64,000 bases of DNA from Paucibacter sp. DJ2R-2 (GTDB taxonomy: Bacteria; Pseudomonadota; Gammaproteobacteria; Burkholderiales; Burkholderiaceae_C), in contig NZ_JAJIRT010000001.1 in NCBI RefSeq assembly GCF_025717675.1, positions 1,240,001 to 1,304,000 of the forward strand, in the 5' to 3' direction. Below the pieces are notes generated by a model. It was not told where the DNA came from, made no database searches, and worked only from the letters and a program-made list of their open reading frames with translations. The translations under genes were made by a program, and so were the position numbers. Below are positions 7,574-46,699 of this stretch, piece after piece; position 1 is the first letter of the stretch; every line of letters begins with the position of its first letter.

Positions 7574-9289
7574 TCACCGGAAGTCGCGGAAGCTCAGTGG
7601 CACCGCAGGGGCTTGGCAGCGAAAGCGCTGATCTTCACTTTGCTCTGCGCTCAGGGCTCCCGTTTCTCTGCACACAGCAAGAAAACGTTCGCTTTCAGGC
7701 TTGGCAAACTCCGCAATGCGCGCGGCGATGAATCGGGCGCGATCCAAGTCACCCGCGGCGCGAAGCGCATCAGCCCAAGCGACCAAAAGTGCAACATCAA
7801 TCGCACCATGCGCCGCATACTCGGCAACCCGCACACCCATTGAATCATTCTTCATGTCAAGCGCAGTTGCACGATACCCGACCCAGGAGAATAGCAAGGA
7901 GTTGCGCGCGGACTTCAACTGCTCCAGCCATTCCGGAGATCCTCTGTTTTTAGCAAGGGTTTGCAAATCCGCAGTGACTTTGTATTGCAGAGCACCGAAT
8001 AGTGCTGCGACCACCAAAATACAGCCAGCAAGATAATTCAGAGAACGTACCGGTTGTACTGTGGTTTCTTGCGAGCCAGGTGATTTCAAAACCATGGCAG
8101 CCAGAATCGCAACCGGCATTAGAAAATACATTCTCCACAAAGGGTATTCAAAAAGGCTGTGCCAGCCGATCACCAAGAGCATCAGAAACGCTGCCTGCTT
8201 GCTGATCGCGGCGGCACCGTGCGATGCCCTGATATTCAGCCGTGCTTTCCAGAGAATTGCACCAAACCCGGCAGTAAAAAATAGGGCAAATGGCACTCCC
8301 ATTTCCAGCGCCAAATGCAAAATCAGATTGTGGGCATTGTCAAAGTAGTGACTTTGGAGCCCAGTTTTCGGAGTTAGGGTCCACACGAAATTAAATTCGC
8401 CCCAACCTACGCCCCACAACCAGTTTTCTTTCACGAGCAAGAGAACATCTCGCCAAAGCTGTGTACGCCCACTGCTAGACCCTAACAATACCTTTTGGGT
8501 CAACAGCAATTCTTCTGCCTTGAGATGCGTCCAGATCGAGAATGCAGCCCAAACGGCCAGCAACAGCAGCGAGCTGATCCACAAGCACTTCCGCACGCCG
8601 ATGTGCAAACTGCGATCCAAGATCGCCCAAACGCCCAGAACCAAACAGGCAAGCAACCCCATTCGTGAGGCGGTCAGAACCAGGGCCGTCAGCAGAACAA
8701 GGAGTGCGGGTAACACCAGGCGCAGACTGAGTCTGCCTTTCGCGTGAAGTGCGCTCAGCGAGACCGCCGCCCACAGTTCAAGCAGAGCGGACAGGTTGGG
8801 TTGCCTCAGGTTTCCGCTTCCGTATCCGATCTGAAAGCCCTGTGCCACCCACATGTCATCGGCCAACTCTGGCGCGAATACCTGGATCAGAATCACCAAG
8901 GCGTTGATCAGACCCGCGCACACAAAAGCCCCAAAAAAGGCATCGGCCCACGCATCCAATGTCTCTGCACGGGCAGCGGCCCGCCAATGCACCAGCGCGA
9001 AGCCGAGAATTGCGAACCCGCCAAGCAAACCTTGATCCAAACTCCCGCTCAGCCGATTGGACTGAACAAATGCGAAGCTCCCCAGCAAAACAGCACCGCC
9101 CACAAGGCACTGGCTTGCAGTCGCCAATTTCCCTTGCTTGACTGATTCTTTTTCAAGAGCAAGAAAAACAAAGCCCCAAGCCAGAACTACCATCAGCTGC
9201 TGAGCAACGCCAATCAGTGGCAGGACTTCCAGGGCGAGAATGACTGGAAAGCAGACAGCGAAAAACAGAGCAATTGGTAACGCTGACAT
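7574..9289 (-). CDS. pglL: PglL/PilO-like O-oligosaccharyltransferase (Wzy_C family)
   Basis: Multispanning inner-membrane protein of 571 aa with about ten or more hydrophobic segments. The region around residues 325-350 (NAHNLILHLALEMGVP) and the later HSLFEYPLWRMYFLMP motif are typical of the Wzy_C / PglL group, which transfers lipid-linked glycans to proteins or to O-antigen. It lies 66 bases downstream of pilA on the same strand, which points to pilin as the likely acceptor. A terminator stands between them, so expression may be by readthrough or from its own promoter. An O-antigen ligase role cannot be excluded. Confidence 0.8.
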   Translation of the reverse strand: MSALPIALFFAVCFPVILALEVLPLIGVAQQLMVVLAWGFVFLALEKESVKQGKLATASQCLVGGAVLLGSFAFVQSNRLSGSLDQGLLGGFAILGFALVHWRAAARAETLDAWADAFFGAFVCAGLINALVILIQVFAPELADDMWVAQGFQIGYGSGNLRQPNLSALLELWAAVSLSALHAKGRLSLRLVLPALLVLLTALVLTASRMGLLACLVLGVWAILDRSLHIGVRKCLWISSLLLLAVWAAFSIWTHLKAEELLLTQKVLLGSSSGRTQLWRDVLLLVKENWLWGVGWGEFNFVWTLTPKTGLQSHYFDNAHNLILHLALEMGVPFALFFTAGFGAILWKARLNIRASHGAAAISKQAAFLMLLVIGWHSLFEYPLWRMYFLMPVAILAAMVLKSPGSQETTVQPVRSLNYLAGCILVVAALFGALQYKVTADLQTLAKNRGSPEWLEQLKSARNSLLFSWVGYRATALDMKNDSMGVRVAEYAAHGAIDVALLVAWADALRAAGDLDRARFIAARIAEFAKPESERFLAVCRETGALSAEQSEDQRFRCQAPAVPLSFRDFR

Positions 9290-9313
9290 ACAGTTTCCTT
9301 AACGCCCAAGAAA

Positions 9314-9337
9314 AAAGGGTCGCAAAAGCGACCCTTT
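9314..9337 (-). terminator. Rho-independent terminator after pilA
   Basis: A perfect 10-bp stem (AAAGGGTCGC with GCGACCCTTT) around an AAAA loop. On the minus strand it is followed by a run of T, 19 bases after the pilA stop. It separates highly expressed pilA from the transferase gene. Confidence 0.9.
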
Positions 9338-9355
9338 CAACCATCGATTCTTTTT

Positions 9356-9778
9356 TTACTTCACATAACCGGCGGTCGCGCATGGGCCAGAGTAGGCCCA
9401 CACAACACCATTGCCGCTCACGCTCGGTGTCAAGGTACATGTTTCCGTGGTCAGAACGCCCTTGTATGCATTCGGAGTTGCCACGATAGCTGCTGTAGTT
9501 CCCGTGACAGCAACTTCCTTCAGAGCACCGCTAGTCATACCGCTCGCGAGAGAGATACCCAGTTTGGTCGCAGTGTCACAATCAGCCAAACTCGACGTCG
9601 TGTTGTAGCAAATGCCGATTGCCGTTTTTGCAGGTGCCATGCCGGCGATGACTTCGGAGTATGCCGCTTTCTTGATATAGCTCTGATAGGCCGGAATGGC
9701 CACAGCCGCCAAGATACCAATGATCGCCACAACGATCATCAGTTCGATCAAAGTGAAACCTTGTTGAACGCGCTTCAT
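9356..9778 (-). CDS. pilA: Type IV major pilin PilA
   Basis: A 140-aa prepilin. A short positively charged leader ends in Gly7, followed by [20 protein letters not shown], the classical type IV pilin N-terminus with Glu at mature position 5. It would be cleaved and methylated by PilD after Gly7. Four cysteines (57, 67, 114, 133) could form two disulfides, including the C-terminal D-region loop. A good ribosome site (AGGAG, 8 bases before ATG) is present. Upstream lie a sigma-54 promoter and twin palindromes. No other pil genes are in view. Confidence 0.97.
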
Positions 9779-9828
9779 GGTGAGTACTCCTGCAAAAAAG
9801 TGAACGGGGGGAGGGACACACCCCCTGA

Positions 9829-9846
9829 ATGCAGGGGTCGTGCCAG
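9829..9846 (-). promoter_or_regulatory. Sigma-54 promoter of pilA
   Basis: On the minus strand the sequence reads CTGGCACGACCCCTGCAT. It has the invariant GG (9844-9843) and GC (9832-9831) 12 bases apart, and TGGCACG is a perfect -24 element. The predicted transcript start near 9819 gives a leader of about 40 bases before the pilA ATG. RpoN-dependent pilA transcription is established in other bacteria, where PilR activates it. Confidence 0.88.
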
Positions 9847-9907
9847 GGCTGGCCGAGCCTTATCGCGTGAGAAAGCGCACGAATGGCGGCGCCCGTCGGG
9901 CTTCGCA

Positions 9908-9973
9908 TGACAATTTTTGTCAGCCACGCCCTCGAACCTGCCGACATAAAGCGCCATGTGACAAATTTTGTCA
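9908..9973 (-). promoter_or_regulatory. Twin 15-bp palindromes, candidate PilR enhancer sites
   Basis: Two inverted repeats, TGACAATTTTTGTCA at 9908-9922 and TGACAAATTTTGTCA at 9959-9973, have centres 51 bp apart (about five helical turns). They sit at about -96 and -147 from the predicted sigma-54 start site, the usual place for an enhancer-binding activator. The TGTC half-site resembles the published PilR recognition element. The activator gene is not in this window. Confidence 0.75.
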
Positions 9974-10089
9974 GCACATCCCATGGTCGCCCCAGGCCAA
10001 GGCCCGAAATGCAAAACGGCAGCCAGGGCGGCTGCCGTCGGTCCATCCGGGGCTGGCAGCCTTGAAGCTACCTTTCCCATGCTCTGAAT

Positions 10090-10881
10090 TCAAGCCGGTG
10101 ATGCGGCACCCAGCTCCATCACCATGCCGGCGGCCAAGGCGCTGATCCGGTGGCTGCTGGCCAGGGCGGCGACCTCGGCCATCACGGCCTGACCCTCGCC
10201 TGGCTTGATATGGGTGATCTGCACCTGCACCGAGCCACTCAGCTGAGCCAGTTCGGCCCCCAGGCGGGCGGGGCTCAGATGCCGGCTCAGGTCGGCCAGC
10301 TCCTGTTCCTCGTTGCTGAAGGCGGTTTCGATCACCAAGTGGCTGACCTGCAGCTGAGCCAACCGGGCCCAGAGCGCCGGGTTGGGGCCGGTGTCTCCGG
10401 TGAAGACCCAATGGCCCTCGGCGCCGGCCACGGCGAAGCCGCAGGCCGGCACGGTGTGGGCGGCGCTGAGCACCTCGATGCGCCGACCGCCCAGGTCCAG
10501 CACCTCACCCACCTCGAAGGCGTGCAAGGCCAGCACCGGCTGGGCCGCGCTGGGCAGGCGGGTGAAATCAGGCCAGATCACTCCGTTGAAGATGTGCCGG
10601 CGCAGCGCCTCCAGGGTGGCTGGCAAGCCATGGACCTGAATCGGCGGCCGGCCCGCCTCGGCGCGCATGCGCAGCACCGAATCGGCCAACAGCGGGATCG
10701 ACAGCACATGATCAAGATGGGAATGACTGACCAGGATGTGGTCGATGCGCGCCAAGTCCTCCAGCGGCAGATCGGCCACGCCCGTGCCGGCGTCGATCAG
10801 CACATCGTCGTCGAGCAGGAAGGCGGTGGTCTTGTAGCCGGCCGCAATGGCGCCGGAACAGCCGAGGACGCGAATTTTCAT
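10090..10881 (-). CDS. Class II 3',5'-cyclic-nucleotide phosphodiesterase-like MBL-fold hydrolase
   Basis: A 263-aa metallo-beta-lactamase-fold protein. The metal motif H-S-H-L-D-H is at residues 53-58, a second ligand set includes the FTGDTGPNP segment, and a third includes ITHIKPG. The H-x-H-L-D-H context followed by a hydrophobic run fits PDEase_II, the class II cyclic-nucleotide phosphodiesterases. I chose the start MKIRVLGCSG because the fold begins there; an ATG three codons upstream (10890) is also possible. It is divergently oriented from the SNF2 helicase gene. Substrate is inferred, not shown. Confidence 0.8.
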   Translation of the reverse strand: MKIRVLGCSGAIAAGYKTTAFLLDDDVLIDAGTGVADLPLEDLARIDHILVSHSHLDHVLSIPLLADSVLRMRAEAGRPPIQVHGLPATLEALRRHIFNGVIWPDFTRLPSAAQPVLALHAFEVGEVLDLGGRRIEVLSAAHTVPACGFAVAGAEGHWVFTGDTGPNPALWARLAQLQVSHLVIETAFSNEEQELADLSRHLSPARLGAELAQLSGSVQVQITHIKPGEGQAVMAEVAALASSHRISALAAGMVMELGAASPA

Positions 10882-11124
10882 GAGAGGCATCAGATGGAGC
10901 GGTATGGCTGTCGCGGCGCCGCTCTGAACCGGGCCGTGTGACAAGGCCCTCCAATGTACTGAGCCCCAGCGCCGAAACAAGGGAGCATTACCGGCTTTGT
11001 CGGCACAAAGGCGCAGACAGGGGCTGCGAATCAGACCGGCGTGATTTGCAGCACATCGGCCTCGCCGCCAGCGCGCTTGGCATACTCCCGCCTCCAAGAG
11101 AGAGAAAAAGAAAAGTGTGCGCCC

Positions 11125-15450
<4,326 letters not shown>

Positions 15451-19244: not shown

Positions 19245-20210
19245 TCAGTCGATCTGCGGGCCGCCGCGCGCGCGCTCGTCCAGATAGCGCTTGAGGCGCT
19301 GTCGCTCCGAGTCATCCTGCGAGGCGCCGCGCCAGGCCTGGATCCAGGCCTCGCGCTGTGGGTCGGCCGCCAGCTTGCGCGCGGCCTGGTCGATGGCCTC
19401 GATCTGCTTGCGCCCTTCCGGCGTGCGGCTGCAGGCATAGGTGGCCAGGGGGGTGCTGACGCCTTCCAGCAAGGGCAGCTTGAGCAGCTCGCCCGGCGCC
19501 ACGGCAACGCTCTTCAGGTACTCGTCCACGGCACTGGCGTAATCCAGGGTGTAGTCCATGCGCTGAGCCAACAGCATGGCCAGCAGATGGGACTGACGGC
19601 CGGTCACCACCGTCTTGGGCGCCCGCGGCCCGGCGCCCTGCAAGGCGGCATCGGCCTTGGGGCCATATGAGCGGTCACGTGGCAGCAGGCCGACCAGCTC
19701 GCTCTGCAGCAGCTCTCCCAGCGCCACCTGGCGGCCGAACTTCTCGAAGCGCGGGGCCAGCTCGCGCCGCGTCACCACGACCAGCTGGCGCGAGATCAGG
19801 GGCGGATGCACATGGGTGAAGTAGAGCCAGCTCTGCCGCTCCGGCGTGTTGACATGCAAGGGCGAGCACAGGGTTTGGCCCTGGCGCACCAGGGCCTCGA
19901 AACGCGGAAAGCCGGCATCGAGAAACTCATGGCGGTATTGGGGCAAATGCTGGATCAGCAAGCGCAGATAGCCATCGATCTCGCCATTGCCCAGATCGGA
20001 GGCGCGTTGGGGCGGCCGGCCGGCCGGATAGGTGAGGTGGGGCGGCACATCGCGCACCATCCAGCGGATCACGCCAGGCTCGGGGCCCTGGTCGGCCGCG
20101 GGCGAGGAGGCCTGGGCGAGCACGGCCATGGGCAGCAGGCCCAACAGCGCCACCCCACTCAACCATCCCCAAGCACGCCAGCCGGCCCTGAGCCGCACGC
20201 CTGGCCTCAC
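19245..20210 (-). CDS. Periplasmic solute-binding family 3-like protein (TIGR02285-like)
   Basis: A 321-aa exported protein. The GTG at 20210 overlaps the MurA-family stop by four bases (GTGA), so translation is coupled. A hydrophobic leader ends at VLAQASS. The mature part resembles periplasmic binding proteins of family 3 of the TIGR02285 kind (MVRDVPPH near the N-terminus, CSPLHVNTPERQ, YTLDYASAVDEYL). Such proteins often occur without a transporter and may act as sensors. The ligand is unknown. Confidence 0.75.
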   Translation of the reverse strand: MRPGVRLRAGWRAWGWLSGVALLGLLPMAVLAQASSPAADQGPEPGVIRWMVRDVPPHLTYPAGRPPQRASDLGNGEIDGYLRLLIQHLPQYRHEFLDAGFPRFEALVRQGQTLCSPLHVNTPERQSWLYFTHVHPPLISRQLVVVTRRELAPRFEKFGRQVALGELLQSELVGLLPRDRSYGPKADAALQGAGPRAPKTVVTGRQSHLLAMLLAQRMDYTLDYASAVDEYLKSVAVAPGELLKLPLLEGVSTPLATYACSRTPEGRKQIEAIDQAARKLAADPQREAWIQAWRGASQDDSERQRLKRYLDERARGGPQID

Positions 20211-21508
20211 TCGCTATCGACCCACTCAATGCGAGCGCCCAGGGTGCAGATGTTCTCGACGAACTGCGGGTGGGCACGGCGGATTGGTGTGGCGTTGCGG
20301 ATCACCGACTTGCCCGGGATGCTGGCCGCCACCATCAGCAGGGCGATGGCCACACGAATGATGTAAGGGCTCTCGACTTCGGCCGCGTGCAAGGGCTTGC
20401 CGCCGAAGGTGACCATGCGGTGCGGGTCGGACAGGAAGGCGTGGGCGCCGAACTTGCTCAGCTCCGAAGTCCAGCCCATGGCGCCGTCGTAGATCTTGTT
20501 CCAGAACATCACGCTGCCCTCGGCCTTGACGCCCAGGGCCACGAAGATGGGCAGCAGGTCGACCGGCAGGTAGGGCCAGGGCGCCGCCTCGACCTTCTGC
20601 AGGATGTTGCGGGTGAACGGTTCCTTGACCTTGAGCGGCCCATTCGTGACCGAACGCGACCAGCCGTTCTCATGAATGATCTGCACGCCGAACTTGGCAA
20701 AGGTACGGTCGATCAGCGGGAACTGCTCGGGCGTGGAGTTCTTCACCTCGACCCGGCCGCCGGTGATGGCGCCCAGGGCCAGGAAGGTGACGATCTCGTG
20801 GAAGTCTTCGGCGAAGGTGAATTCACCGCCGCCTAAGCGCTCGACGCCGTGGATGGTCAGGCGCGAGGTGCCCAGGCCTTCGATCTGCGCGCCCAAAAGC
20901 TTCAGAAAGGCGCAGAACTCCTGCACATGGGGCTCGGAGGCGGCGTTCATCAGCGTCGAACGGCCGCTGGCCAGGGCGGCGCAGAGCACGAAGTTCTCGG
21001 TCGTGGTGACCGAGGCGTAGTCGGTCCAGTGGTCATTGGCCTGCAGGCGCGCGGGCACGGCCAGCACCAGGCCGTCGGGCTGGCGCTCGACGCTGGCGCC
21101 GAAGCGTTGGAAGACCTCGACATGGGGGTCGATCTCGCGCACGCCCAGGGTGCAGCCGGTCACATCGTCCTCGATGCGGGCCGAGCAGAAGCGCGCCAGC
21201 AGGCCGGGCACCAGCATGATGGAGCTGCGCATCTCTTCGGGCAGGCGGTCGCGGGCGGCGTCGAAGTGGGTGTCGCGGTGGTGCAGGTTCAGCACCCGGC
21301 TCTTGGCATCCATCTCGACCGAGCTGCCCAGGCTGCGGAAGACATCGAGGATCTTCTTCACATCCGTGATGTCGGGCACCCCGTGCAGGCGCACCGGCTC
21401 GCGCGTCAGCAGGGTCGCGCAGAGGATGGGCAGGACGGCATTCTTGTTGGCCGAGGGGACGATGCGGCCGGCAAGAGGCGTGCCGCCGTGGACGATGAGA
21501 TTGGACAT
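20207..21508 (-). CDS. UDP-N-acetylglucosamine 1-carboxyvinyltransferase family protein (divergent MurA)
   Basis: A 433-aa enzyme of the EPSP-synthase fold. MurA catalyses the first committed step of peptidoglycan synthesis, adding enolpyruvate to UDP-GlcNAc. Key residues are conserved: the ANKNAVLPIL lysine-asparagine pair, a Cys in VTGCTLGVREID near residue 118 (the phosphoenolpyruvate/fosfomycin Cys), and an Asp in LPVDLLPIF near 315. The sequence is clearly diverged from the usual MurA text I know, and the locus differs from the canonical murA-hisG setting. I read it as a probable second paralogue rather than the housekeeping gene. Confidence 0.85.
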   Translation of the reverse strand: MSNLIVHGGTPLAGRIVPSANKNAVLPILCATLLTREPVRLHGVPDITDVKKILDVFRSLGSSVEMDAKSRVLNLHHRDTHFDAARDRLPEEMRSSIMLVPGLLARFCSARIEDDVTGCTLGVREIDPHVEVFQRFGASVERQPDGLVLAVPARLQANDHWTDYASVTTTENFVLCAALASGRSTLMNAASEPHVQEFCAFLKLLGAQIEGLGTSRLTIHGVERLGGGEFTFAEDFHEIVTFLALGAITGGRVEVKNSTPEQFPLIDRTFAKFGVQIIHENGWSRSVTNGPLKVKEPFTRNILQKVEAAPWPYLPVDLLPIFVALGVKAEGSVMFWNKIYDGAMGWTSELSKFGAHAFLSDPHRMVTFGGKPLHAAEVESPYIIRVAIALLMVAASIPGKSVIRNATPIRRAHPQFVENICTLGARIEWVDSE

Positions 21509-22648: not shown

Positions 22649-23491
22649 TCAGCTGCTGGGATCAAGGCGACGGGCCCGCGCCAAGCGCCAAGCTTCCTTG
22701 GGGTCGTCGCCATAGACCTGCTCGGCCGTGGTGGCGGTTTCCTGCAGCCGGGTGTCCAGGGCCATGCGTTTATCGAAGACAAAGCACTCGCCCTGCCAGT
22801 CGGCCGCCGCATCGGGCATCTGCTCGAAATAGCTGACGATGCCGCCGTCGAGCTGGTAGACATCGAGGCCCTGGCTCTGCATCCAGGCACTGGTCTTCTC
22901 GCAGCGGATGCCGCCGGTGCAATACATGGCGATGCGCTTGCCCTCGGCCTTCCAGGCCTCGGCATGGGCGGCCACATAGGCCGGGAAATCGCGGAAATGC
23001 GCGACCTCGGGATCGACCGCATTCTTGAAACGGCCCAGCCGGTATTCAAAGCTGTTGCGGTTGTCCAGCACCAGCACATCGGGCTCGCTGATCAGCTCAC
23101 GCCAGCGCTGCGGCGAGACATGGGTGTCGGGCAGATCGGGGGCCGGCAGGCCGCTGACACCGGGCACGCCGAAGGCGACGATCTCCGGCTTGCAATGGAC
23201 CTTGATCAGGGTGAAGGGCCGGGTCGCGCAAGCGCTGTGCTTGAACACCAGGCCTTGGAAGGCGCCGCCAAAGGCGGGGTCTTCGTGCAGCGCACGCTCG
23301 AAGGCGGCCAGCGCCGTGGCCGGCGCGGCGATGGCGCCGCTGATGCCTTCGCCGGCCACCAGGATGTTGCCGCCGATGCCGGTCTCAGGTGTGCTCAGCT
23401 CGCGCAGCCGGGCTGCCACCGCCTCGGGTTCGGCCAGGGCGACGAAACGGTAGAAGGAGGAATGGACATGGGGCTCGCTCATCACGCTCAT
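22649..23491 (-). CDS. trhO: tRNA uridine hydroxylase TrhO (YceA, rhodanese-domain)
   Basis: A 280-aa protein of the YceA/TrhO family, which hydroxylates uridine 34 of certain tRNAs in an oxygen-dependent route to 5-hydroxyuridine. The N-terminal acylphosphatase-like domain (GIGGNILVAGEGISG) is followed by a rhodanese domain with the active loop CTGGIRCEK near residue 192. The C-terminal part is slightly short compared with enzymes that have a zinc-like tail. It lies 12 bases after the desulfurase-rhodanese gene, so two rhodanese proteins are co-expressed. Confidence 0.92.
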   Translation of the reverse strand: MSVMSEPHVHSSFYRFVALAEPEAVAARLRELSTPETGIGGNILVAGEGISGAIAAPATALAAFERALHEDPAFGGAFQGLVFKHSACATRPFTLIKVHCKPEIVAFGVPGVSGLPAPDLPDTHVSPQRWRELISEPDVLVLDNRNSFEYRLGRFKNAVDPEVAHFRDFPAYVAAHAEAWKAEGKRIAMYCTGGIRCEKTSAWMQSQGLDVYQLDGGIVSYFEQMPDAAADWQGECFVFDKRMALDTRLQETATTAEQVYGDDPKEAWRLARARRLDPSS

Positions 23492-23503
23492 GAACGCTCG
23501 CCC

Positions 23504-25582
23504 TCAGACCAGCAAGGCCGGGTCGGCCGCAGGCGCCACGATGGGCGCATCGGGCAGCAGGGCCAGGCCACCGGCCAGGGTCCAGGCCTGGCCATGGCCC
23601 AGGCGGGCCAGGGCTTGCGCGGCCTGGCGGCTGCGGTTGCCGCTGCGGCAGAAGAACAGCAGCGGCTGTTGCTCGGCCAGCCAGCCCGGAATGGCATTGA
23701 GAAAGCGCGACAGCGGCATGGCTTGCAAGGCCACGCCGGCCAGCTCGGGCGTCTGGCTCAGGAACTGCTCATAGGGCTCGCGCACATCGATCAGCAAGGC
23801 GTCGGGGTGGGCGTCGACAAAGCGCTGCAGCTGCTCACCCGAAAGCTGCAAAAGGGGCGCGGCCACGGCCTCGCCACGCTCCAGCGCCACGGTGCTGGCC
23901 AGCAGCTGGGCCAGGTCGTTCGGCGGTGCGATCAAGGCCTGCGGACCGATCTGCTCGGCCAGCGCCAGCGCCTGCTGCGGGTCGACGAAAGCCAGGCAGC
24001 AGGCTTGCGCCGGCCCGCCTTCGCTGAGCAGCAAGGCCTGGCCGCCACCGTCCAAAAGCACGCGGCGCAAACGCCTGGCGCCCAGGTCCAATTCGGTCTG
24101 CGTCAGCGGCCAGCCGAGCGCATCGATCTCGGCCGCGGCGTCGAGCAGGTCGGGCAGCTCGGCCGCCAGCAAGGCGCGTGCCTCGCCATGGGCGGCCGCG
24201 CCGCTGCTGCTGAGCACGGCGGCAATGGGATAGTTTTGACAGCGCAAGACCTGGGCTAGGCGGCTGAGTTGCTCGGGCAGGGGGTCGATCAGCACACAGC
24301 GCTGCGCGGCCGCATCGGCCAGCACATAGCAGCAGGCGCCTTCCAGCATGAAGCGGCTCAAGCCCTCGCCGACGGTGGGCAGGTTGTCAGTCGGGCTCAT
24401 GCAATTGCGGCGCAGCGATTCACCGCAGGCCTGGATGCGGGCACAGGCTTCGGCGATGAAAGCCTCGTCCACGGCCGGGCCGATGGACAGGCGCACGGCG
24501 CCGGCTGCTTGCCAGTCGGGCAAGCCCATGGCCTGCAGCACAAAGCTCGGTGCGGCCTTGGCCGCGCTGCAGGCCGAGCCGCCGCTGACGCGCACATCGG
24601 CGGCGTCGAACAGGTCCTGCAGCAGGCGCGAGCTCAGACCCGGCACCGAGAAATTGAGGGTGGTGGGCAGGCTCTGTGCCAGCGGCGCGTTGTAGACCAG
24701 GCCTGGGAAGGCCTGCTCGAGCGCGGCGGCCAAGCGGGCGCGGAAGCCGCTCATCTCGGCATGGCTGCGGAAGGTCTTGCCCTCCGGGTCTTCCAGCGCC
24801 TCCAGCACCGCGCCCAGGGCGGCGATGCCGGACATGTTCTCGGTGCCCGAACGCAGCGCCCCTTCCTGGCCGCCGCCAGCCATCAGCGGGGTGAAGGGCG
24901 CACCATTGCGCACATAGAGCAGGCCGATGCCCTTGGGCGCGTAGAGCTTGTGGCCGGAGAAGGGCGCGTAATCGATGCGGCTCTGGCTCAGGCGCAGCGG
25001 GATCTTGCCCAGGGCCTGCACGCCGTCCACCATCCAGAAGGCGGCACTGCCGCTGGCCTCGAGCGCCGCCTCGATGCCGGCCAGGTCGCTGACCACGCCG
25101 GTCTCGTTGTTGGCGGCCATGGTGCAGACCAGGCCGGCCTGGGGCGCTTCACGGCGCAGGAAATCCAGGTCGTGCTGGCCCTGGAGATTGACCGGGATCG
25201 CCCGGATCGCCAGGTTCAGGCCCAGCACCGCATTCCAATGCTTGAGCGCCTCGGGCACGGCCTTGTGCTCGGTGGCGCCGTAGAGCAGCTGGCTGCCGAT
25301 GGCCTCGCCGGCCTCACGGCGCTCGCGCAGCGCATGCAGGGCCGAGAGCACGGCCGTCTGTATGCCTTCGGTGGCGCCGCTGACGAAGAGCAGCTGGCCG
25401 CGGCCCGTGTCCAGCAGGCGCTGGGCGCGGGCGCGCACGCCGTCGATCAAGGCGCGCGCCTTGAGACCGGTGCTGTGCACGCTGCTGGGGTTGCCGTAGT
25501 CCTCCACCATGGCCTGGATGGCCGCCGCCTTGGCCTGCGGCAGCACGGGCGTGGTGGCATTGGCGTCGAGATAGATTTCCAT
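23504..25582 (-). CDS. Cysteine desulfurase fused to degenerate MBL-like domain and rhodanese
   Basis: A 692-aa three-part fusion. Residues 1-394 are an IscS/NifS-type PLP cysteine desulfurase: DANATTP at the start, the PLP lysine in FSGHKLYAP near 209, and a catalytic Cys in GGSACSAAK near 336. Residues about 395-590 look like an ETHE1/persulfide-dioxygenase-type metallo-beta-lactamase domain, but the expected H-x-H-x-D-H is gone. Residues 590-692 are a rhodanese domain with active loop FFCRSGNRSRQAA near 645. The start MEIYLDANATTP was preferred to a longer in-frame extension. It heads a likely seven-gene operon with trhO next. Confidence 0.92.
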   Translation of the reverse strand: MEIYLDANATTPVLPQAKAAAIQAMVEDYGNPSSVHSTGLKARALIDGVRARAQRLLDTGRGQLLFVSGATEGIQTAVLSALHALRERREAGEAIGSQLLYGATEHKAVPEALKHWNAVLGLNLAIRAIPVNLQGQHDLDFLRREAPQAGLVCTMAANNETGVVSDLAGIEAALEASGSAAFWMVDGVQALGKIPLRLSQSRIDYAPFSGHKLYAPKGIGLLYVRNGAPFTPLMAGGGQEGALRSGTENMSGIAALGAVLEALEDPEGKTFRSHAEMSGFRARLAAALEQAFPGLVYNAPLAQSLPTTLNFSVPGLSSRLLQDLFDAADVRVSGGSACSAAKAAPSFVLQAMGLPDWQAAGAVRLSIGPAVDEAFIAEACARIQACGESLRRNCMSPTDNLPTVGEGLSRFMLEGACCYVLADAAAQRCVLIDPLPEQLSRLAQVLRCQNYPIAAVLSSSGAAAHGEARALLAAELPDLLDAAAEIDALGWPLTQTELDLGARRLRRVLLDGGGQALLLSEGGPAQACCLAFVDPQQALALAEQIGPQALIAPPNDLAQLLASTVALERGEAVAAPLLQLSGEQLQRFVDAHPDALLIDVREPYEQFLSQTPELAGVALQAMPLSRFLNAIPGWLAEQQPLLFFCRSGNRSRQAAQALARLGHGQAWTLAGGLALLPDAPIVAPAADPALLV

Positions 25583-27619: not shown

Positions 27620-27635
27620 GTCGGCAGTTTATGCG

Positions 27636-27649
27636 AAACGTATACGTTT
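27636..27649 (-). promoter_or_regulatory. 14-bp palindrome, candidate operator of ParD-like/map
   Basis: A perfect palindrome AAACGTATACGTTT lies 17 bases before the ParD-like ATG, followed on the plus strand by a further GTATAG. A self-binding ribbon-helix-helix protein would be the natural ligand. This is inference from position. Confidence 0.5.
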
Positions 27650-27738
27650 TGTATAGACAGGCACACCCAGCTCCCGCCCGCTTCGCAGCAGACCTGCTCG
27701 CTACAATCGGCCGCCTTTCTTTCTCACCGGAATCCTTG

Positions 27739-28605
27739 ATGGCCCTGTCCGAACGCCACGCCGTGCTGCTGCAACACCTGCTGCCCAAGCAGGCACTGAC
27801 ACGCTTTGCCGGCTGGGTCGCTGGCGCACGCATGGGCGGGCTTACCACGGCCATCATCCGGCGCTTCGTGGCCCGCTACCACGTCAATATGGCCGAGGCA
27901 GCCAACCCCGACATCGCCGCCTACCCGAGCTTCAACGAGTTCTTCACCCGAGCGCTCAAGCCCGGCGCCCGCCCCCTGGCCGACGCCCCCCTGATCTGCC
28001 CGGTGGACGGCGCGATCAGCCAGTTCGGCCGTATCCAGGGCGAGCAGATCTTCCAGGCCAAGGGCCACGACTTCAGCTGCACCGCCCTGGTCGGCGGCGA
28101 CGCCAGCCTGGCTGCGCAGTTCCGTGACGGCCACTTCGCCAACATCTACCTCAGCCCCAAGGACTACCACCGCATCCACATGCCCTGCGATGGCCGCCTG
28201 ACGCGCATGATCCATGTGCCCGGCGATCTGTTCTCGGTCAACCCGGTCACAGCCCGCGGCGTGCCGGGCCTGTTCGCCCGCAACGAGCGCGTGGTCTGCG
28301 TCTTCGAGAGCGAACAAGGTCCGTGGGTGATGGTGCTGGTTGGCGCCACCATCGTCGGCAGCATGGCCACCATCTGGCACGGCGTGGTCAACCCGCCGCG
28401 CCCGGGCTCCGTGCGCGAATGGAGTTACGCACCCGGCCAGGTCAGCCTCAAGAAGGGCGATGAACTGGGTCGCTTCCTGCTCGGCTCCACCGTGGTGATG
28501 CTCTTCCCCGCCAGCCAGGGCCTGCAGTTCAACCCGGCCTGGCAGGGCGAGAGCCTGGAGCAGCGTGGCAGCGCGGTGCGCCTGGGTGAGGTGATGGCGC
28601 ACTGA
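27739..28605 (+). CDS. psd: Phosphatidylserine decarboxylase proenzyme
   Basis: A 288-aa inner-membrane enzyme that makes phosphatidylethanolamine from phosphatidylserine. The self-cleaving motif LGST is present near residue 247 (FLLGSTVVML); the Ser becomes the pyruvoyl group. The YPSFNEFFTR and PVDGAISQFG segments match the family. ATG 27739 was chosen because the family starts with this helix; the longer frame to 27631 runs through the divergent promoter. The length is normal. It is divergent from the ParD-like/map pair. Confidence 0.95.
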   Translation: MALSERHAVLLQHLLPKQALTRFAGWVAGARMGGLTTAIIRRFVARYHVNMAEAANPDIAAYPSFNEFFTRALKPGARPLADAPLICPVDGAISQFGRIQGEQIFQAKGHDFSCTALVGGDASLAAQFRDGHFANIYLSPKDYHRIHMPCDGRLTRMIHVPGDLFSVNPVTARGVPGLFARNERVVCVFESEQGPWVMVLVGATIVGSMATIWHGVVNPPRPGSVREWSYAPGQVSLKKGDELGRFLLGSTVVMLFPASQGLQFNPAWQGESLEQRGSAVRLGEVMAH

Positions 28606-28788: not shown

Positions 28789-29982
28789 ATGAACACACTG
28801 CCTTTGCTTCGCTCCTCCGGAGCCCTGACGCGCCTGCGTCGCGCTCTGCCCCTGATCACCTTGCTGGCCCTCGGTGCCGGCCTGCTCTGCAGCGGCCAGG
28901 CTCAGGCGCAGAGCTATCAAGTTCAGTCCCTCAGCCAGAACGGCGCCTTCACTTACGCGCTGAACGCACGTGGCCAGGTCAGCGGCAGCCTGTTGGACAA
29001 CAACGGCACTTACCAGGCCTTCCTCAGCGGCCCCGATGGCCAAAGCCTGGTGGCCATGACCCAACTGCCCGGTGACGCCACCGGCAACGCGATCAACTTC
29101 TCAGGCCAAATCGCCGGGGAAGTGATCACCGCCAGCAATCCGACCCGGGTTGAAGCCTTCGTCACCGGCGCCCAGGGTCAGAACGCCATCCTGCTCGGCG
29201 GCATCGGCGGCAATGTGACGACGGCCCGCGGCATCAATGACAGCGGCACCGTGATCGGCATGGGCCGCGACGGCAGCGGCAGCACCAAATTCCATGCCTT
29301 GCGCTGGCAAGCCAACAGCACCGAAGCAGAGCGCCTACTCACCCTGGGCGGCAACACCAGCAGTGCCCAAGCCATCAACGGCAGCGGACTGATCGTCGGC
29401 AACTCGGGCCTCAGCGATGGCAGCCTCCATGCCGTGATCTGGGGCCTGAACGGCGCCGCCATCACCGATCTGGGCACCTTGGGTGGCTTGAACAGCTCGG
29501 CCCTGGCCATCAATCAGAGCGCCCAGGTGGCGGGCACATCGCGCGTGGCGGATGGCAGCCTGCATGCCTTCATCACCGGTGCTGGCGCCCAGAGCATGAG
29601 CGACCTCGGCACCCTGGGCTGGGTGCACAGCCAGGCCGGCTTCATCAACAACGCCGGTGTCGTGGCCGGCACTCTGCTCAACGGCACCGACGGCGATTCC
29701 TACTTCGAGGGCCACGCCTTCATCACCGGTGCCAACGGCCAGGGCATGGTGGATCTGAACAGCTTGGTCAACGTGGGCGAAGGCCTGTACCTGAACGATG
29801 TCTGGGGCTTGAACGACGCCGGCCAACTCTTGGTCAGCGACCAGAACGGCTTGGCCTACCTGCTCACTCCCGTGCCCGAAGCCACGACATCGGCCATGCT
29901 GCTGGCGGGTCTGCTGGTGCTGGCCCTGCTGGCGCGTCAGCGTCGCCGCTCAGCGGCATCGCTCAAACCGGCCTTGGATTGA
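28789..29982 (+). CDS. HAF-repeat extracellular protein with PEP-CTERM-like sorting signal
   Basis: A 397-aa exported protein. The leader ends near SGQAQA. The mature part has repeated units of about 40-50 residues with the pattern LGTLGG..S.A..IN..GQVAG, as in TDLGTLGGLNSSALAINQ and SDLGTLGWVHSQAGFINN, which is the HAF repeat family. The C-terminus reads VPEATTSAMLLAGLL followed by a hydrophobic span and RQRRR, a PEP-CTERM-type signal handled by an exosortase. No exosortase is in the window. It overlaps the convergent LysR gene by 20 bases. Confidence 0.85.
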   Translation: MNTLPLLRSSGALTRLRRALPLITLLALGAGLLCSGQAQAQSYQVQSLSQNGAFTYALNARGQVSGSLLDNNGTYQAFLSGPDGQSLVAMTQLPGDATGNAINFSGQIAGEVITASNPTRVEAFVTGAQGQNAILLGGIGGNVTTARGINDSGTVIGMGRDGSGSTKFHALRWQANSTEAERLLTLGGNTSSAQAINGSGLIVGNSGLSDGSLHAVIWGLNGAAITDLGTLGGLNSSALAINQSAQVAGTSRVADGSLHAFITGAGAQSMSDLGTLGWVHSQAGFINNAGVVAGTLLNGTDGDSYFEGHAFITGANGQGMVDLNSLVNVGEGLYLNDVWGLNDAGQLLVSDQNGLAYLLTPVPEATTSAMLLAGLLVLALLARQRRRSAASLKPALD

Positions 29983-43771: not shown

Positions 43772-44512
43772 GTGTCACCTGGGTCGCGGGAGAGTGAAGG
43801 CCAACGAGGCTGACGAACAAGCCGAGATACACGCCACCCACGCCGCCTGGTGCGTGTGAATGTCTGCGAGGGCGAGTCGTTGAGCTCATCGTTGAGATGG
43901 AATCGGTAGGCTCCGTTTTCGGGGTCTGCGCCGGATTGTGCCGCCTGCCAGCCGCGTTATGGAACCCCGGTTTGCCCGAAGCTCGCTCACGCGGCCTTCT
44001 CAATGCCATGCACGATGCAAGACACAGGACTCAGCGTCTGACCTTGGCGTGGCCTCGGTAGTTCAAGAGGTTCAGCTGCTTGTTGTGGCAGATGTCCAGC
44101 AACAACCATAGGCGCCAAGGCAAGGATGTGCGGGCAGCTACGTCGCGGCAATGGTGCAAAGGGGTCAGGCCTTGCCCTGAAACATAAGGCGTGACCGCGC
44201 CACCTGGACCCCGCCGCTCTGCAAGGTGCGATGACGGCTCAGACCGCCGGCGGAAAAGAATGACCACCCCGTTGTGGCGCGCAGCGCCAGCACCTCCGAC
44301 CCCGTGATGCAGATGGAGGCCAGCTAACCCGCATTCGGGTCCGGAGCACCGACCTGTTGACTGCTACAAGGCAGTCTAAGAGTGGGCGTAGTTTCTCTGT
44401 GTACCCCTTCGTCCCTCGATGTACGAGATGGCAATAAGCTAGGGTCAGGTCTCGATGAGAAATCAGAACGACGGAGTTGAAGAGAAGGAAAGCCCCTGTA
44501 AGGCATCAGGCT
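43772..44512. other. 741-base region without a confident gene
   Basis: I find no well-supported gene here. It holds one copy of a 50-bp repeat (43930-43979), a small hairpin ACCCG-CATT-CGGGT at 44327-44340, and a weak minus-strand frame at 44031-44267 with GLTPLHHCRD and LNLLNYRGHAKV, which faintly recalls ankyrin repeats. It is probably a decayed accessory gene. Confidence 0.5.
43930..43979. repeat. 50-bp direct repeat, copy A
   Basis: It begins GCCGGATTGTGCCGC and, after ten variable bases, continues CGTTATGGAA and so on to CCCGA. It aligns without gaps to copy B at 45803-45852 in the same orientation. It lies upstream of the minus-strand membrane-protein gene. Confidence 0.7.
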
Positions 44513-45088
44513 TCACTTGCGACCACCAGGAACCAAAGAGAAGGACGTCCTCGTGTGGGTGAGACCGTCCTGGGCAGCGAGATTTGTCAATTCCGCGGTG
44601 TATTCGCCGCGGGCAAGTGTGACCCAACCAATGCTCCGCGACTTTCGGTTGTTGGAGTGGCTCTGAAGGCACAACGTTACAAACTTCGAATCGACAACGA
44701 CAGAACTATCGTTTGCCCTGCGAATGACCACTCTGATTGGTATGGGGCGACCGTACTCTGCTTGTCCTGCCAGCGACATTGGGTTGCTCTGGCAGCCTGC
44801 AGCGTAGTTGTTGCCAACAATCTTGTCTTGAAGACGGGCCTCAGTTGAAGCGAACTCGAATTCCAGAAGGAACTGGTAGCTCTTGTCAACTGGGACAGTG
44901 AATGAACTGGAGGTCGCGATGCCTGCAGTTTGAAGCGGTAGTGCTGTACTGCCAATAAGGGGCGGAAACACGCACAGCCCAACGATCCACATTGCCGGGC
45001 CGATGATGCCGTTCTGACAGAGAGCGTATGCAGTTGGTCCCATATACAGCCGAACGTTTGCGCTGAGTTTCGAGCAGCTGATGGGCAC
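44513..45088 (-). CDS. Hypothetical membrane-anchored protein (DUF5625-like), possibly frameshifted
   Basis: A 191-aa frame from GTG 45088. A transmembrane segment (IIGPAMWIVGLCVFPPLIG) is followed by a soluble domain with FTVPVDKSYQFLLEFEF, which reminds me of DUF5625-type small proteins. The start lacks a ribosome site. A better start, MSQVEVSNRSF at 45176, overlaps the upstream stop in ATGA but lies in another frame, so a frameshift near 45085 is possible. GC is low compared with the host. No function assigned. Confidence 0.55.
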   Translation of the reverse strand: MPISCSKLSANVRLYMGPTAYALCQNGIIGPAMWIVGLCVFPPLIGSTALPLQTAGIATSSSFTVPVDKSYQFLLEFEFASTEARLQDKIVGNNYAAGCQSNPMSLAGQAEYGRPIPIRVVIRRANDSSVVVDSKFVTLCLQSHSNNRKSRSIGWVTLARGEYTAELTNLAAQDGLTHTRTSFSLVPGGRK

Positions 45089-45172
45089 GGAAGGTCCAGA
45101 ACGAAACAGAGGCCTGGAGTGGCCAGTCGTCGCGAGTCAGCTTAAACGACCGGTTGGAAACTTCCACCTGAC

Positions 45173-45703
45173 TCATGCGATTGGTTTATAGCCCTTGTCG
45201 GATATTTCAAGATGCAGCGCTACTCGCGCGCAAAGCATCTCAGCAAACGGTATCCCTTGATTCTTGTCGCTTACGACACGAACCAATTCCTTGGTGGAAT
45301 AGCCGACAGTACCGACTTCCACCACCAGCTGTGTCTTGTAACCGATTGGTCGAGCCCTGACCCACGCTGCGTCGGATACGTCAACCTCCTTCGTGGCCAG
45401 TTGGCGACCAAACAAAATCGTTGTCTTTCGCACTTTCTTGGCTCCGGGATCAAGTTCGGACTTGCGCCTCAAACCACGTGCCGCGATCAAACAGAAAATG
45501 ACGAGCAACGTGCTCGCGAAAGCCAATTTTGGGCTCAGACCCAATCTGGTCGAGTCCCAAATCTTAACCACGGCTGTAGCAGACCCAATAGCCGACAAGC
45601 GCCATGTGGTTGGATCGGTGACAAGGTATTCGTCGAGATCGACCAGTGGCATGGAACTTCTAAATTGGCTGTCCAAAAACTCAAAAGCTGCAGCAGCTCG
45701 CAT
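45173..45703 (-). CDS. Hypothetical protein with one TM segment
   Basis: A 176-aa protein with a TM segment (LAFASTLLVIFCLIAARGL) in the middle and a basic-rich C-terminal part (GRQLATKEVDVSDAAWV, EVGTVGYSTKELVRVV). The start may be MRAAAAF (45703) or MPLVDLDEY (45652). It is followed in ATGA overlap by the next short frame, suggesting a two-gene unit. Local GC is well below that of the core genes, suggesting transfer. No family recognised. Confidence 0.55.
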   Translation of the reverse strand: MRAAAAFEFLDSQFRSSMPLVDLDEYLVTDPTTWRLSAIGSATAVVKIWDSTRLGLSPKLAFASTLLVIFCLIAARGLRRKSELDPGAKKVRKTTILFGRQLATKEVDVSDAAWVRARPIGYKTQLVVEVGTVGYSTKELVRVVSDKNQGIPFAEMLCARVALHLEISDKGYKPIA

Positions 45704-45802
45704 CCCTCTGTACGCACGCGAGCGAGAGTACGTGATCGCAATTCGTGAGTTTTGGATTCATGGATGAACTAGGAACCGTAGGCCGACACTTTCGACGGCT
45801 AA

Positions 45803-45852
45803 GCCGGATTGTGCCGCGTACGCGTTCCGTTATCGAATCCTAGTTTCCCCGA
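45803..45852. repeat. 50-bp direct repeat, copy B
   Basis: It begins GCCGGATTGTGCCGC and aligns without gaps to copy A (43930-43979): 15 identical bases, a 10-base variable block, CGTTAT, then 14 of 19 identical. It lies just beyond the orphan gene pair and 16 bases from the fabI stop. Confidence 0.7.
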
Positions 45853-45867
45853 TGCCGGTGCAGCATC

Positions 45868-46695
45868 TCACGCCATATGGTGCAGCCCCCCATCCACATA
45901 CAGCGTGTCCCCCGTCATCCCCGACGCCCCGCCGCCGACCAAAAATGCGACCAGGCGGCCGACTTCGGCGATGTCGATCAGGCGGTGGGCGGGCGCGCGG
46001 CTGACGGCCATGTCGATCAGCTCGTCGAAGTGGTCAATGCCGGAGGCCGCGCGGGTGCGCAGCGGGCCGGGCGAGACAGCGAAGACGCGAACCTGGCGTT
46101 CGGCCAGCTCGCTGGCCAGGTAGCGCACGCTGGACTGCAGCGCGGCCTTGACCGGGCCCATCAGGTTGTAGTGATCCACGACCTTGTCGGCGCCGTGATA
46201 GCTCATGGTGATCAGCGCGCCGCCGGGGTTCATGAGCGGCTCGGCATAACGCGCCATTTCGATGAAGGAATGGCAGGACACCTGCATGGCTTGCAGAAAG
46301 CCGGCCTGCGAGCAGTCGATCACTCGGCCGTGCAGGTCATCGCGCGGCGCAAAGGCGATTGAGTGGATGACGAAGTCCAGCGTTCCCCAGGTCTCGCGCA
46401 GCTGTTCGAACACGGCTTGCATCTGGCCGGGCTGGCTGACGTCCAGCGGCATCAGCAGGCGCGCATCGAGCGCCTCGGCCAGCGGCGCGACATGGGGGCG
46501 AGCCTTGTCGTTGAGGTAGGTGAGTGCAATCTCGGCGCCGAAGGCGCGCAGCTTGGCGGCGCAGCCGAAAGCGATGCTGTCGCCATTGGCCACGCCGACC
46601 ACCAGGCCGCGCTTGCCTTTGAGCATGTCGCCGATGCGGGTGTCCTCGTCCCAGATCTTGGGCAGGGGGTCGCGAGAAGTGTTGTCGTGGTTCAT
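45868..46695 (-). CDS. fabI: Enoyl-ACP reductase FabI-family protein
   Basis: A 275-aa short-chain dehydrogenase of the FabI type, which reduces enoyl-ACP in fatty-acid synthesis. The N-terminal nucleotide motif is VGVANGDSIAFG. The catalytic Tyr-x6-Lys is in HYNLMGPVKAAL, with a second Tyr ten residues earlier (MSYHGADK). The N-terminal extension of about 25 residues is unusual. It starts four bases after DUF3141 ends, so it is cotranscribed with DUF3141 and probably ackA. It is likely a paralogue of the housekeeping FabI. Confidence 0.88.
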   Translation of the reverse strand: MNHDNTSRDPLPKIWDEDTRIGDMLKGKRGLVVGVANGDSIAFGCAAKLRAFGAEIALTYLNDKARPHVAPLAEALDARLLMPLDVSQPGQMQAVFEQLRETWGTLDFVIHSIAFAPRDDLHGRVIDCSQAGFLQAMQVSCHSFIEMARYAEPLMNPGGALITMSYHGADKVVDHYNLMGPVKAALQSSVRYLASELAERQVRVFAVSPGPLRTRAASGIDHFDELIDMAVSRAPAHRLIDIAEVGRLVAFLVGGGASGMTGDTLYVDGGLHHMA

Positions 46696-46699
46696 GGCT

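What the first reader, a model, noticed from the sequence alone, without database searches (positions are those of the whole stretch)
22649..25582. Cysteine desulfurase / dead MBL-like / rhodanese fusion co-transcribed with TrhO
A PLP desulfurase with intact Lys and Cys is fused to a domain that looks like a persulfide-dioxygenase (ETHE1) fold that lost its H-x-H-x-D-H, then to a rhodanese with an intact Cys. TrhO, another rhodanese-domain tRNA enzyme, follows by 12 bases. The chain could pass persulfide sulfur internally, the dead domain acting as scaffold or shield, and link it to tRNA modification.
Basis: partly seen in the sequence, partly recalled or inferred. Interest (0 to 1): 0.75.

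Follow-up and report, generated by a model that had tools for sequence, protein, structure and literature searches.

The report
Desulfurase–rhodanese fusion with disarmed oxidase
A bacterial enzyme that pulls sulfur off cysteine carries in its middle a sulfur-oxidising domain that has lost its metal site, and in one lineage its gene has come to sit in front of a tRNA-modifying gene, which suggests that sulfur once burnt off may now be handed on to other proteins.

Summary
Window 23504-25582 (-) encodes 692 aa: cysteine desulfurase (K212, C338), a middle domain, rhodanese (C645); trhO follows after 12 bases. The middle domain is an ex-persulfide dioxygenase: its fold, predicted from metal-site-less sequences alone, matches ETHE1 best, and a congener carries the same fusion with all seven metal ligands, aligning along the whole of BpPRF, a known dioxygenase-rhodanese fusion. 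Of 113 distinct relatives 52 are intact, 46 lack the metal site, 15 lack the domain; the other three catalytic residues stay in 113 of 113. The tree forces at least five changes. The two-domain form is known: Pseudorhodoferax CD-Rhd relays cysteine sulfur to its rhodanese (PMC8931425). trhO linkage is real but confined: 22 of 113, none of the 52 intact, compatible with one origin. The 22 also show no Lrp-type regulator, found beside 70 of the other 91. Most likely a cysteine-to-sulfite chain became a plain persulfide relay. TrhO as acceptor is an untested idea. New variant of a known kind.

The parts
23504..25582 (-). Fusion gene: cysteine desulfurase / degenerate persulfide dioxygenase / rhodanese, 692 aa
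   Evidence: conserved start in congeners
24410..25582 (-). Cysteine desulfurase domain, about residues 1-391
   Evidence: Pfam Aminotran_5 168.7 bits; best NCBIfam models NifS/DndA/IscS, all below their cut-offs
24947..24949 (-). PLP lysine K212 (SGHK)
   Evidence: retained in 113 of 113 relatives
24569..24571 (-). Desulfurase catalytic cysteine C338 (GSACSAAK)
   Evidence: retained in 113 of 113
23849..24376 (-). Degenerate persulfide-dioxygenase (MBL-fold) domain, about residues 403-578
   Evidence: AF2 model pLDDT 85.8, pTM 0.83; Foldseek best hit hETHE1; aligned to an intact relative
24185..24220 (-). Remnant of the H-x-H-x-D-H metal motif, read as AVLSSSGAAAHG (residues 455-466)
   Evidence: alignment with THSHGDH of L036
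23555..23827 (-). Rhodanese domain, about residues 586-676
   Evidence: Pfam Rhodanese 28.1 bits, cut-off 22.2, residues 586-673
23648..23650 (-). Rhodanese catalytic cysteine C645 (CRSGNRS)
   Evidence: retained in 113 of 113
23492..23503 (-). 12-base spacer between the two genes
   Evidence: Over the 22 linked loci the spacing printed is -13 to 23 in 20 and 131-132 in two; it runs to the first aligned TrhO residue, not to a proven start codon, and counts one base too many (13 for the window's 12)
22649..23491 (-). trhO, O2-dependent tRNA U34 hydroxylase by family, 280 aa, active-site C191
   Evidence: NF001133 238.1 bits, cut-off 170; CTGGIR
20207..21508 (-). murA-like gene; flank of the trhO locus also in genomes whose fusion lies elsewhere
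   Evidence: EPSP_synthase, PRK09369 326.8 bits over 297, TIGR01072 311.5 under 392.7; synteny
27631..28605 (+). psd, phosphatidylserine decarboxylase; other flank of the trhO locus
   Evidence: TIGR00163; synteny

Best explanation
The protein descends from a one-chain pathway: desulfurase takes sulfur from cysteine as a persulfide on its Cys, rhodanese passes it on, and a persulfide dioxygenase between them oxidises it to sulfite. In the window's lineage the oxidase lost its metal site and shrank, so the chain now only makes and relays persulfide (C338 to C645) to acceptors outside. The dead domain is kept as a loosely constrained folded spacer between the two catalytic parts. The gene also left its Lrp-regulated locus and entered the psd-trhO-murA locus directly ahead of trhO, so it is probably co-transcribed with trhO. 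Shown here: domain identities, loss of ligands, repeated change of the domain, the different loci. Shown elsewhere for the two-domain homologue: the relay. Inferred: sulfite as product of the intact forms, spacer role, direction of the move, co-transcription. Least sure (about 0.25): that TrhO's C191 receives the persulfide.
For: Intact congener protein (L036:6853-9150:-): Pfam Lactamase_B, all seven ligands, and residues 36-373 of its C-terminal part align with 35-372 of BpPRF at E 6e-21. A model from 27 degenerate sequences only has hETHE1 as best PDB match, E 3.6e-8, TM 0.61 by query, followed by other persulfide dioxygenases and BpPRF. 52 intact / 46 dead / 15 two-domain, K-C-C in 113 of 113. 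One clade of all dead or of all two-domain forms is rejected, AU p 5e-49 and 1e-6. Median pairwise dN/dS, desulfurase/middle/rhodanese: 0.21/0.54/0.24 in dead trhO-linked, 0.26/0.39/0.40 in intact. Lrp-type regulator within 800 bases upstream: 35 of 52 intact, 23 of 27 dead unlinked, 12 of 12 two-domain unlinked, 0 of 22 trhO-linked. In nine genomes with the fusion elsewhere (9 of the 17 such), the stretch around trhO holds psd in 7 and murA in 6 and no fusion. Two-domain CD-Rhd relays L-cysteine sulfur via its rhodanese Cys (PMC8931425).
Against: No activity was measured for any three-domain protein, intact or dead. The 22 trhO-linked loci are compatible with one origin (AU p 0.226), and only 1-3 independent pairs bear on the trhO/oxidase association, so it has the weight of very few events. 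Dead domains also occur without trhO (27 loci), so trhO cannot be the general reason for the loss. TrhO residues do not differ between linked and unlinked copies. The section read on TrhO reports in vitro product and names no sulfur source (its methods were not read). dN/dS pairs are not independent and synonymous sites are near saturation; at equal desulfurase identity the rhodanese is no more alike in the dead linked than in the intact group (0.69 and 0.69). The outgroup-rooted quick tree puts two-domain forms at the base, which would make the oxidase a later insertion that was then lost again; its outgroup branch is too long to trust.
Confidence: 0.72

Rival explanations
1. TrhO is the dedicated acceptor: C645 charges TrhO C191 with a persulfide needed for repeated O2-dependent hydroxylation of U34, and the oxidase was disarmed because it would have burnt that persulfide.
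For: All 22 fusions followed by trhO have a dead or deleted oxidase (psd lies in the held DNA of 16 of them), and all 4 intact fusions found beside psd (L062, L065, L113, L190) have no trhO behind; their genomes hold no TrhO closer than 41% identity. Short spacing in 20 of 22. E. coli TrhO C200 is essential, and ten equivalents of enzyme gave 75% product (PMC6599085).
Against: Few independent events. No sulfur source is named for the in vitro reaction in the section read. TrhO occurs without the fusion: 114 of 250 family genomes have a TrhO match at E 1e-40 or better (57 of them at 51% identity or more), 40 of 250 the fusion. Dead oxidases without trhO nearby in 27 loci.
Confidence: 0.25
2. 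The adjacency is a neutral translocation: a persulfide/H2S-making enzyme of cysteine metabolism landed in a housekeeping operon and gained its expression, with no link to TrhO.
For: One origin is not rejected; no co-varying TrhO residue; the four intact fusions beside psd lie in the same neighbourhood without trhO.
Against: Same orientation in 22 of 22 loci and short spacing in 20 of 22, across several genera; absence of the regulator fits a change of role.
Confidence: 0.4
3. The middle domain is still a working enzyme or ligand-binding domain with a rebuilt site (for example through its conserved cysteines C394, C417, C429, C448).
For: Confident fold; dN/dS below 1 (0.54); C429 is Cys in 46 of 46 dead forms but in 32 of 52 intact ones.
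Against: Six of seven ligand positions lost in the window, two of them in alignment gaps; the fastest-evolving of the three parts; lacking outright in 15 of 113, in more than one branch.
Confidence: 0.12

Closest known systems
CD-Rhd of Pseudorhodoferax sp. Leaf274 (WP_056898193.1; PMC8931425, PMC12319549; passages read)
   Same: Desulfurase and rhodanese in one chain, both catalytic Cys; the published relay from desulfurase Cys to rhodanese Cys is the model for this protein
   Different: 54 kDa, catalytic Cys 132 residues apart (334, 466); here 307 (338, 645) with a degenerate dioxygenase domain between; trhO is not mentioned in the passages read
BpPRF, persulfide dioxygenase-rhodanese fusion of Burkholderia phytofirmans (PDB 5ve3-5ve5; Motl 2017 not held; seen only in reference lists)
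   Same: Same order of dioxygenase and rhodanese; the intact relative aligns over its whole length
   Different: No desulfurase; the window protein lacks the metal site that the intact relative has
ETHE1 / persulfide dioxygenases
   Same: Fold
   Different: Of the seven ligand columns the window keeps one
IscS / NifS / DndA cysteine desulfurases
   Same: Class V PLP family, Lys and Cys
   Different: Scores at most half of these equivalog cut-offs (259.7 of 530.75 for NifS)
TrhO (YceA), PMC6599085 (section 13 and passages read)
   Same: The downstream gene meets the TrhO model and has the CTGGIR loop
   Different: No desulfurase partner appears in the titles and abstract starts listed (searches list 20 of 29 and 20 of 118 papers)

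Membership tests
Cysteine desulfurase (class V PLP) | Aminotran_5 domain with PLP Lys and catalytic Cys | tested here: met
   168.7 bits over 21.5; K212, C338
Cysteine desulfurase (class V PLP) | L-cysteine desulfuration | not testable with these tools
   published for the two-domain homologue
NifS / IscS / DndA equivalogs | NCBIfam curated cut-off | tested here: not met
   259.7 of 530.75; 179.7 of 643.2; 213.4 of 480
CD-Rhd fusion | Desulfurase and rhodanese in one chain with both Cys | tested here: met
CD-Rhd fusion | Two domains only, about 130 residues between the two Cys | tested here: not met
   307 residues between C338 and C645, with a third fold between
Persulfide dioxygenase (ETHE1) | MBL fold of the ETHE1 type | tested here: met
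   Foldseek best hit 4chl_B, E 3.6e-8, probability 1.00, TM 0.61 by query, rmsd 11.8 over 232 columns with gaps
Persulfide dioxygenase (ETHE1) | Seven metal-site residues H-x-H-x-D-H, H, D, H (motif recalled; positions taken from the intact relative) | tested here: not met
   one of seven left in the window; all seven in 52 of 113 relatives
PRF (dioxygenase-rhodanese fusion) | Dioxygenase followed by rhodanese, co-linear with BpPRF | tested here: met
   for the intact relative L036, E 6e-21 over 36-373; the window's own half reaches BpPRF only over 160-279 of 298, E 2.1e-5
Rhodanese | Pfam domain with active-site Cys loop | tested here: met
   28.1 over 22.2, C645
TrhO | NF001133 cut-off and CTGGIR | tested here: met
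   238.1 over 170; C191
TrhO | O2-dependent ho5U34 formation | not testable with these tools
   needs an assay; none could be run here

The most novel reading that the evidence does not exclude
TrhO, whose chemistry is unexplained, is a persulfide-charged hydroxylase: a cysteine-fed desulfurase-rhodanese loads its active-site Cys, and this lineage fixed that supply line by disarming the oxidase in the same chain and placing the gene ahead of trhO; where the oxidase stayed alive in that slot, trhO is missing.
Probability: 0.2. Interest if true: 0.82.

Novelty: new variant of a known kind. Interest (0 to 1): 0.6.

Why it matters
It puts the characterised two-domain CD-Rhd into a series: three-domain enzymes that should turn cysteine sulfur into sulfite in one chain, forms with the oxidase disarmed, and forms without it, with at least five changes of the oxidase's state forced by the tree. 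Such repeats show which step evolution can drop and which it keeps: 113 of 113 keep the relay residues. It also gives a cheap test of an open question, how the rhodanese-type enzyme TrhO hydroxylates tRNA with O2: remove or add its operon neighbour and measure ho5U34.

Tried and rejected
Considered and rejected: a middle domain unrelated to the MBL fold (against it); a general fusion-trhO linkage (22 of 113); TrhO residues that mark linked copies (none found among 22 linked and 9 unlinked); one origin of the dead domain. Two scans of viral contigs, each by six short peptide patterns, gave no relatives. Sequence search of the window's middle domain alone is too weak: ETHE1 at E 1.2, no Pfam hit. 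The trhO/dead-oxidase association could not be tested against phylogeny, too few independent pairs. Domain geometry was not measured: no model coordinates are in the box. The outgroup-rooted quick tree was not used for the direction of change. I first thought the rhodanese is under tighter constraint in the linked group; dN/dS says so, identity at equal desulfurase distance does not, so I do not claim it.

Sampling limits: one search kept the 80 best of 530 loci, ranked by likeness to the window, so two-domain forms are under-sampled there; the other distinct rows come; 12 of 125 entries were dropped as identical. Trees use 64 of the 113 (rows over 90% identical with the same labels were merged). 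'Dead' means not all seven ligands; by the printed columns such forms keep 0 to 3 of seven. One intact locus (L085) has no DNA downstream, and 4 of the 22 linked loci have under 800 bases upstream.
Full report
OBSERVATION. On the minus strand, 23504-25582 encodes 692 aa from a conserved ATG, and trhO (22649-23491, 280 aa) starts 12 bases after its stop. Pfam sees Aminotran_5 (3-373) and Rhodanese (586-673) and nothing between. K212, C338 and C645 are in place. The second gene passes the NCBIfam TrhO model, 238.1 bits over 170. The window's closest named relatives are a Burkholderiales MAG (92%) and a Rubrivivax MAG (91%), then Paucibacter/Roseateles records at 70-73%.

THE MIDDLE DOMAIN. By sequence alone the window's domain is nearly mute: no Pfam hit, ETHE1 at E 1.2 in the PDB. 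Two lines identify it. First, a congener (G010; the identical protein is in Roseateles koreensis, L114) has the same fusion with an intact metal site: H469, H471, D473, H474, H522, D544, H585, Pfam Lactamase_B, and an alignment to BpPRF over that protein's whole length (36-373 on 35-372, E 6e-21). The window protein aligns with it at 50% identity and has S460, A462, A464, H465, gap, gap, N555 at the ligand columns. Second, a model from 27 degenerate sequences only (pLDDT 85.8, pTM 0.83) finds hETHE1 as the best PDB match (E 3.6e-8, probability 1.00, TM 0.61 by query, rmsd 11.8 over 232 gapped columns), followed by other persulfide dioxygenases, BpPRF and glyoxalase II; 43 matches reach E 0.001. 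The full-length model has pLDDT 89.3 and pTM 0.88.

THE FAMILY. I gathered 125 loci, 113 distinct proteins. 52 keep all seven ligands, 46 have the domain without a complete site (0 to 3 of seven left), 15 lack the domain (488-538 aa). Lys, desulfurase Cys and rhodanese Cys are kept in 113 of 113. Frequency: 16 of 17 congeners searched, 40 of 250 genomes of the family sample and 5 of 349 of the order sample, own genome included in the last two. On a tree of the desulfurase domain alone (64 merged rows) the intact label needs 7 changes, at least 5 forced by well-supported branches. One clade of all dead forms is rejected (AU p 5e-49), as is one clade of all two-domain forms (p 1e-6). As regaining seven ligands is unlikely, most changes should be losses. 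An outgroup-rooted quick tree puts some two-domain forms at the base; if that root were right the oxidase was inserted once and then lost again in several branches. Its outgroup branch is too long to decide.

SELECTION. At desulfurase identity 0.80-0.85 the middle domain is 47% identical within the trhO-linked dead group, 60% within the Oxalobacteraceae dead group and 67% within the intact group. Median pairwise dN/dS for desulfurase, middle and rhodanese is 0.21, 0.54, 0.24 in the linked dead group, 0.24, 0.45, 0.22 in Oxalobacteraceae dead forms and 0.26, 0.39, 0.40 in intact forms. So the oxidase is relaxed but not free. Whether the rhodanese is under tighter constraint is unclear: dN/dS falls, but identity at equal desulfurase distance is the same (0.69 and 0.69). 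The pairs are not independent and synonymous sites are near saturation.

NEIGHBOURHOOD. trhO lies directly behind on the same strand in 19 of 46 dead and 3 of 15 two-domain forms, in 0 of 52 intact forms (one intact locus has no DNA downstream). A Lrp/AsnC-type regulator (Pfam AsnC_trans_reg, below the Lrp and AsnC equivalog cut-offs) lies within 800 bases upstream in 35 of 52 intact, 23 of 27 dead unlinked, 12 of 12 two-domain unlinked and 0 of 22 trhO-linked loci, divergent in 69 of these 70 (4 of the 22 have under 800 bases upstream). In E. coli the cysteine-dependent regulator CyuR activates the cysteine-degrading cyuPA operon (PMC11408624 and PMC9040844, abstract starts seen; that CyuR is of the Lrp family is recalled). 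By analogy the ancestral gene was probably cysteine-induced; this is inference.

HOW THE GENE CAME TO trhO. Of 17 genomes that hold the fusion and a TrhO of 51% identity or more apart from each other, I fetched the trhO stretch of nine: psd is there in 7, murA in 6, the fusion in none. In the window's lineage the order is psd, fusion, trhO, murA (psd within the held DNA of 16 of the 22 linked loci). So the trhO locus is probably older and the fusion entered it. One origin of the 22 linked loci is not rejected (AU p 0.226). Beside psd, then, trhO goes with a dead or missing oxidase, and its absence with an intact one (4 of 4). This fits competition for the persulfide, but rests on very few events: only 1-3 independent pairs bear on it.

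MECHANISM. The two-domain homologue is a PLP homodimer that desulfurates L-cysteine, passes sulfur to its rhodanese Cys and on to a test protein; without that Cys, catalytic efficiency with GSH or mercaptoethanol falls about tenfold (PMC8931425, passages; a biosensor was built on it, PMC12319549, passages). The window protein keeps all these parts, so the same relay is the best-supported reading. What the relay feeds is open: H2S or small persulfides, protein persulfidation, or TrhO. TrhO needs its rhodanese Cys and takes its oxygen from O2, and its mechanism is left open (PMC6599085, section 13 and passages of the discussion). Against TrhO as acceptor: the section read reports product in vitro and names no sulfur source, and TrhO is common without the fusion.

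PRIOR ART. Papers holding persulfide dioxygenase, cysteine desulfurase, rhodanese and fusion together: two reviews, in whose matching passages no desulfurase-dioxygenase fusion appears. CD-Rhd, desulfurase and rhodanese: three papers, two of them opened. No title or abstract start in the listings (20 of 29; 10 of 10; 20 of 118) tells of a desulfurase for TrhO. The library holds open-licence papers only.

VERDICT. The dead-MBL reading is right and gains an evolutionary series; the trhO link is real but lineage-bound; TrhO as sulfur acceptor is a testable idea, not a finding. New variant of a known kind.

Noticed in passing
L061 and L063 (Roseateles toxinivorans); L161 (G529): One genome holds two fusion paralogues, one with intact and one with degenerate dioxygenase, neither beside trhO; a degenerate copy over 90% identical in the desulfurase part is in G529.
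   Followed up: partly
L103-L127 in part (Duganella, Janthinobacterium and kin) and three other unlinked degenerate loci: A gene of about 1930 aa (median member) follows on the same strand; that gene cluster has 22 members, 21 of them in the first downstream place. Function not looked up.
   Followed up: no
window 24296-24298 (residue C429): C429 of the middle domain is Cys in 46 of 46 degenerate forms but in 32 of 52 intact ones, as if fixed after the metal site was lost.
   Followed up: no
own genome G000: No cmoB over its cut-off (54.1 of 275 bits) although trhO and two peptidase-U32 genes are present, so ho5U34 may stay unmodified or go to another product.
   Followed up: partly
L062, L065, L113, L190: Intact fusions sit beside psd in genomes that lack a close TrhO.
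   Followed up: partly
L192 (G573): Intact fusion with an enlarged middle part, 427 residues between the two Cys where the other intact forms have 367-391.
   Followed up: no
window 8001-12000 and 44001-48000: G+C is 0.605 and 0.613; the other 4-kb blocks have 0.641 to 0.711.
   Followed up: no
window 19245-20210 and 28789-29982: A 321-aa protein without Pfam hit, with relatives near murA in several loci, and a protein with a PEP-CTERM-like end just under its cut-off (19.8 of 20.7 bits).
   Followed up: no
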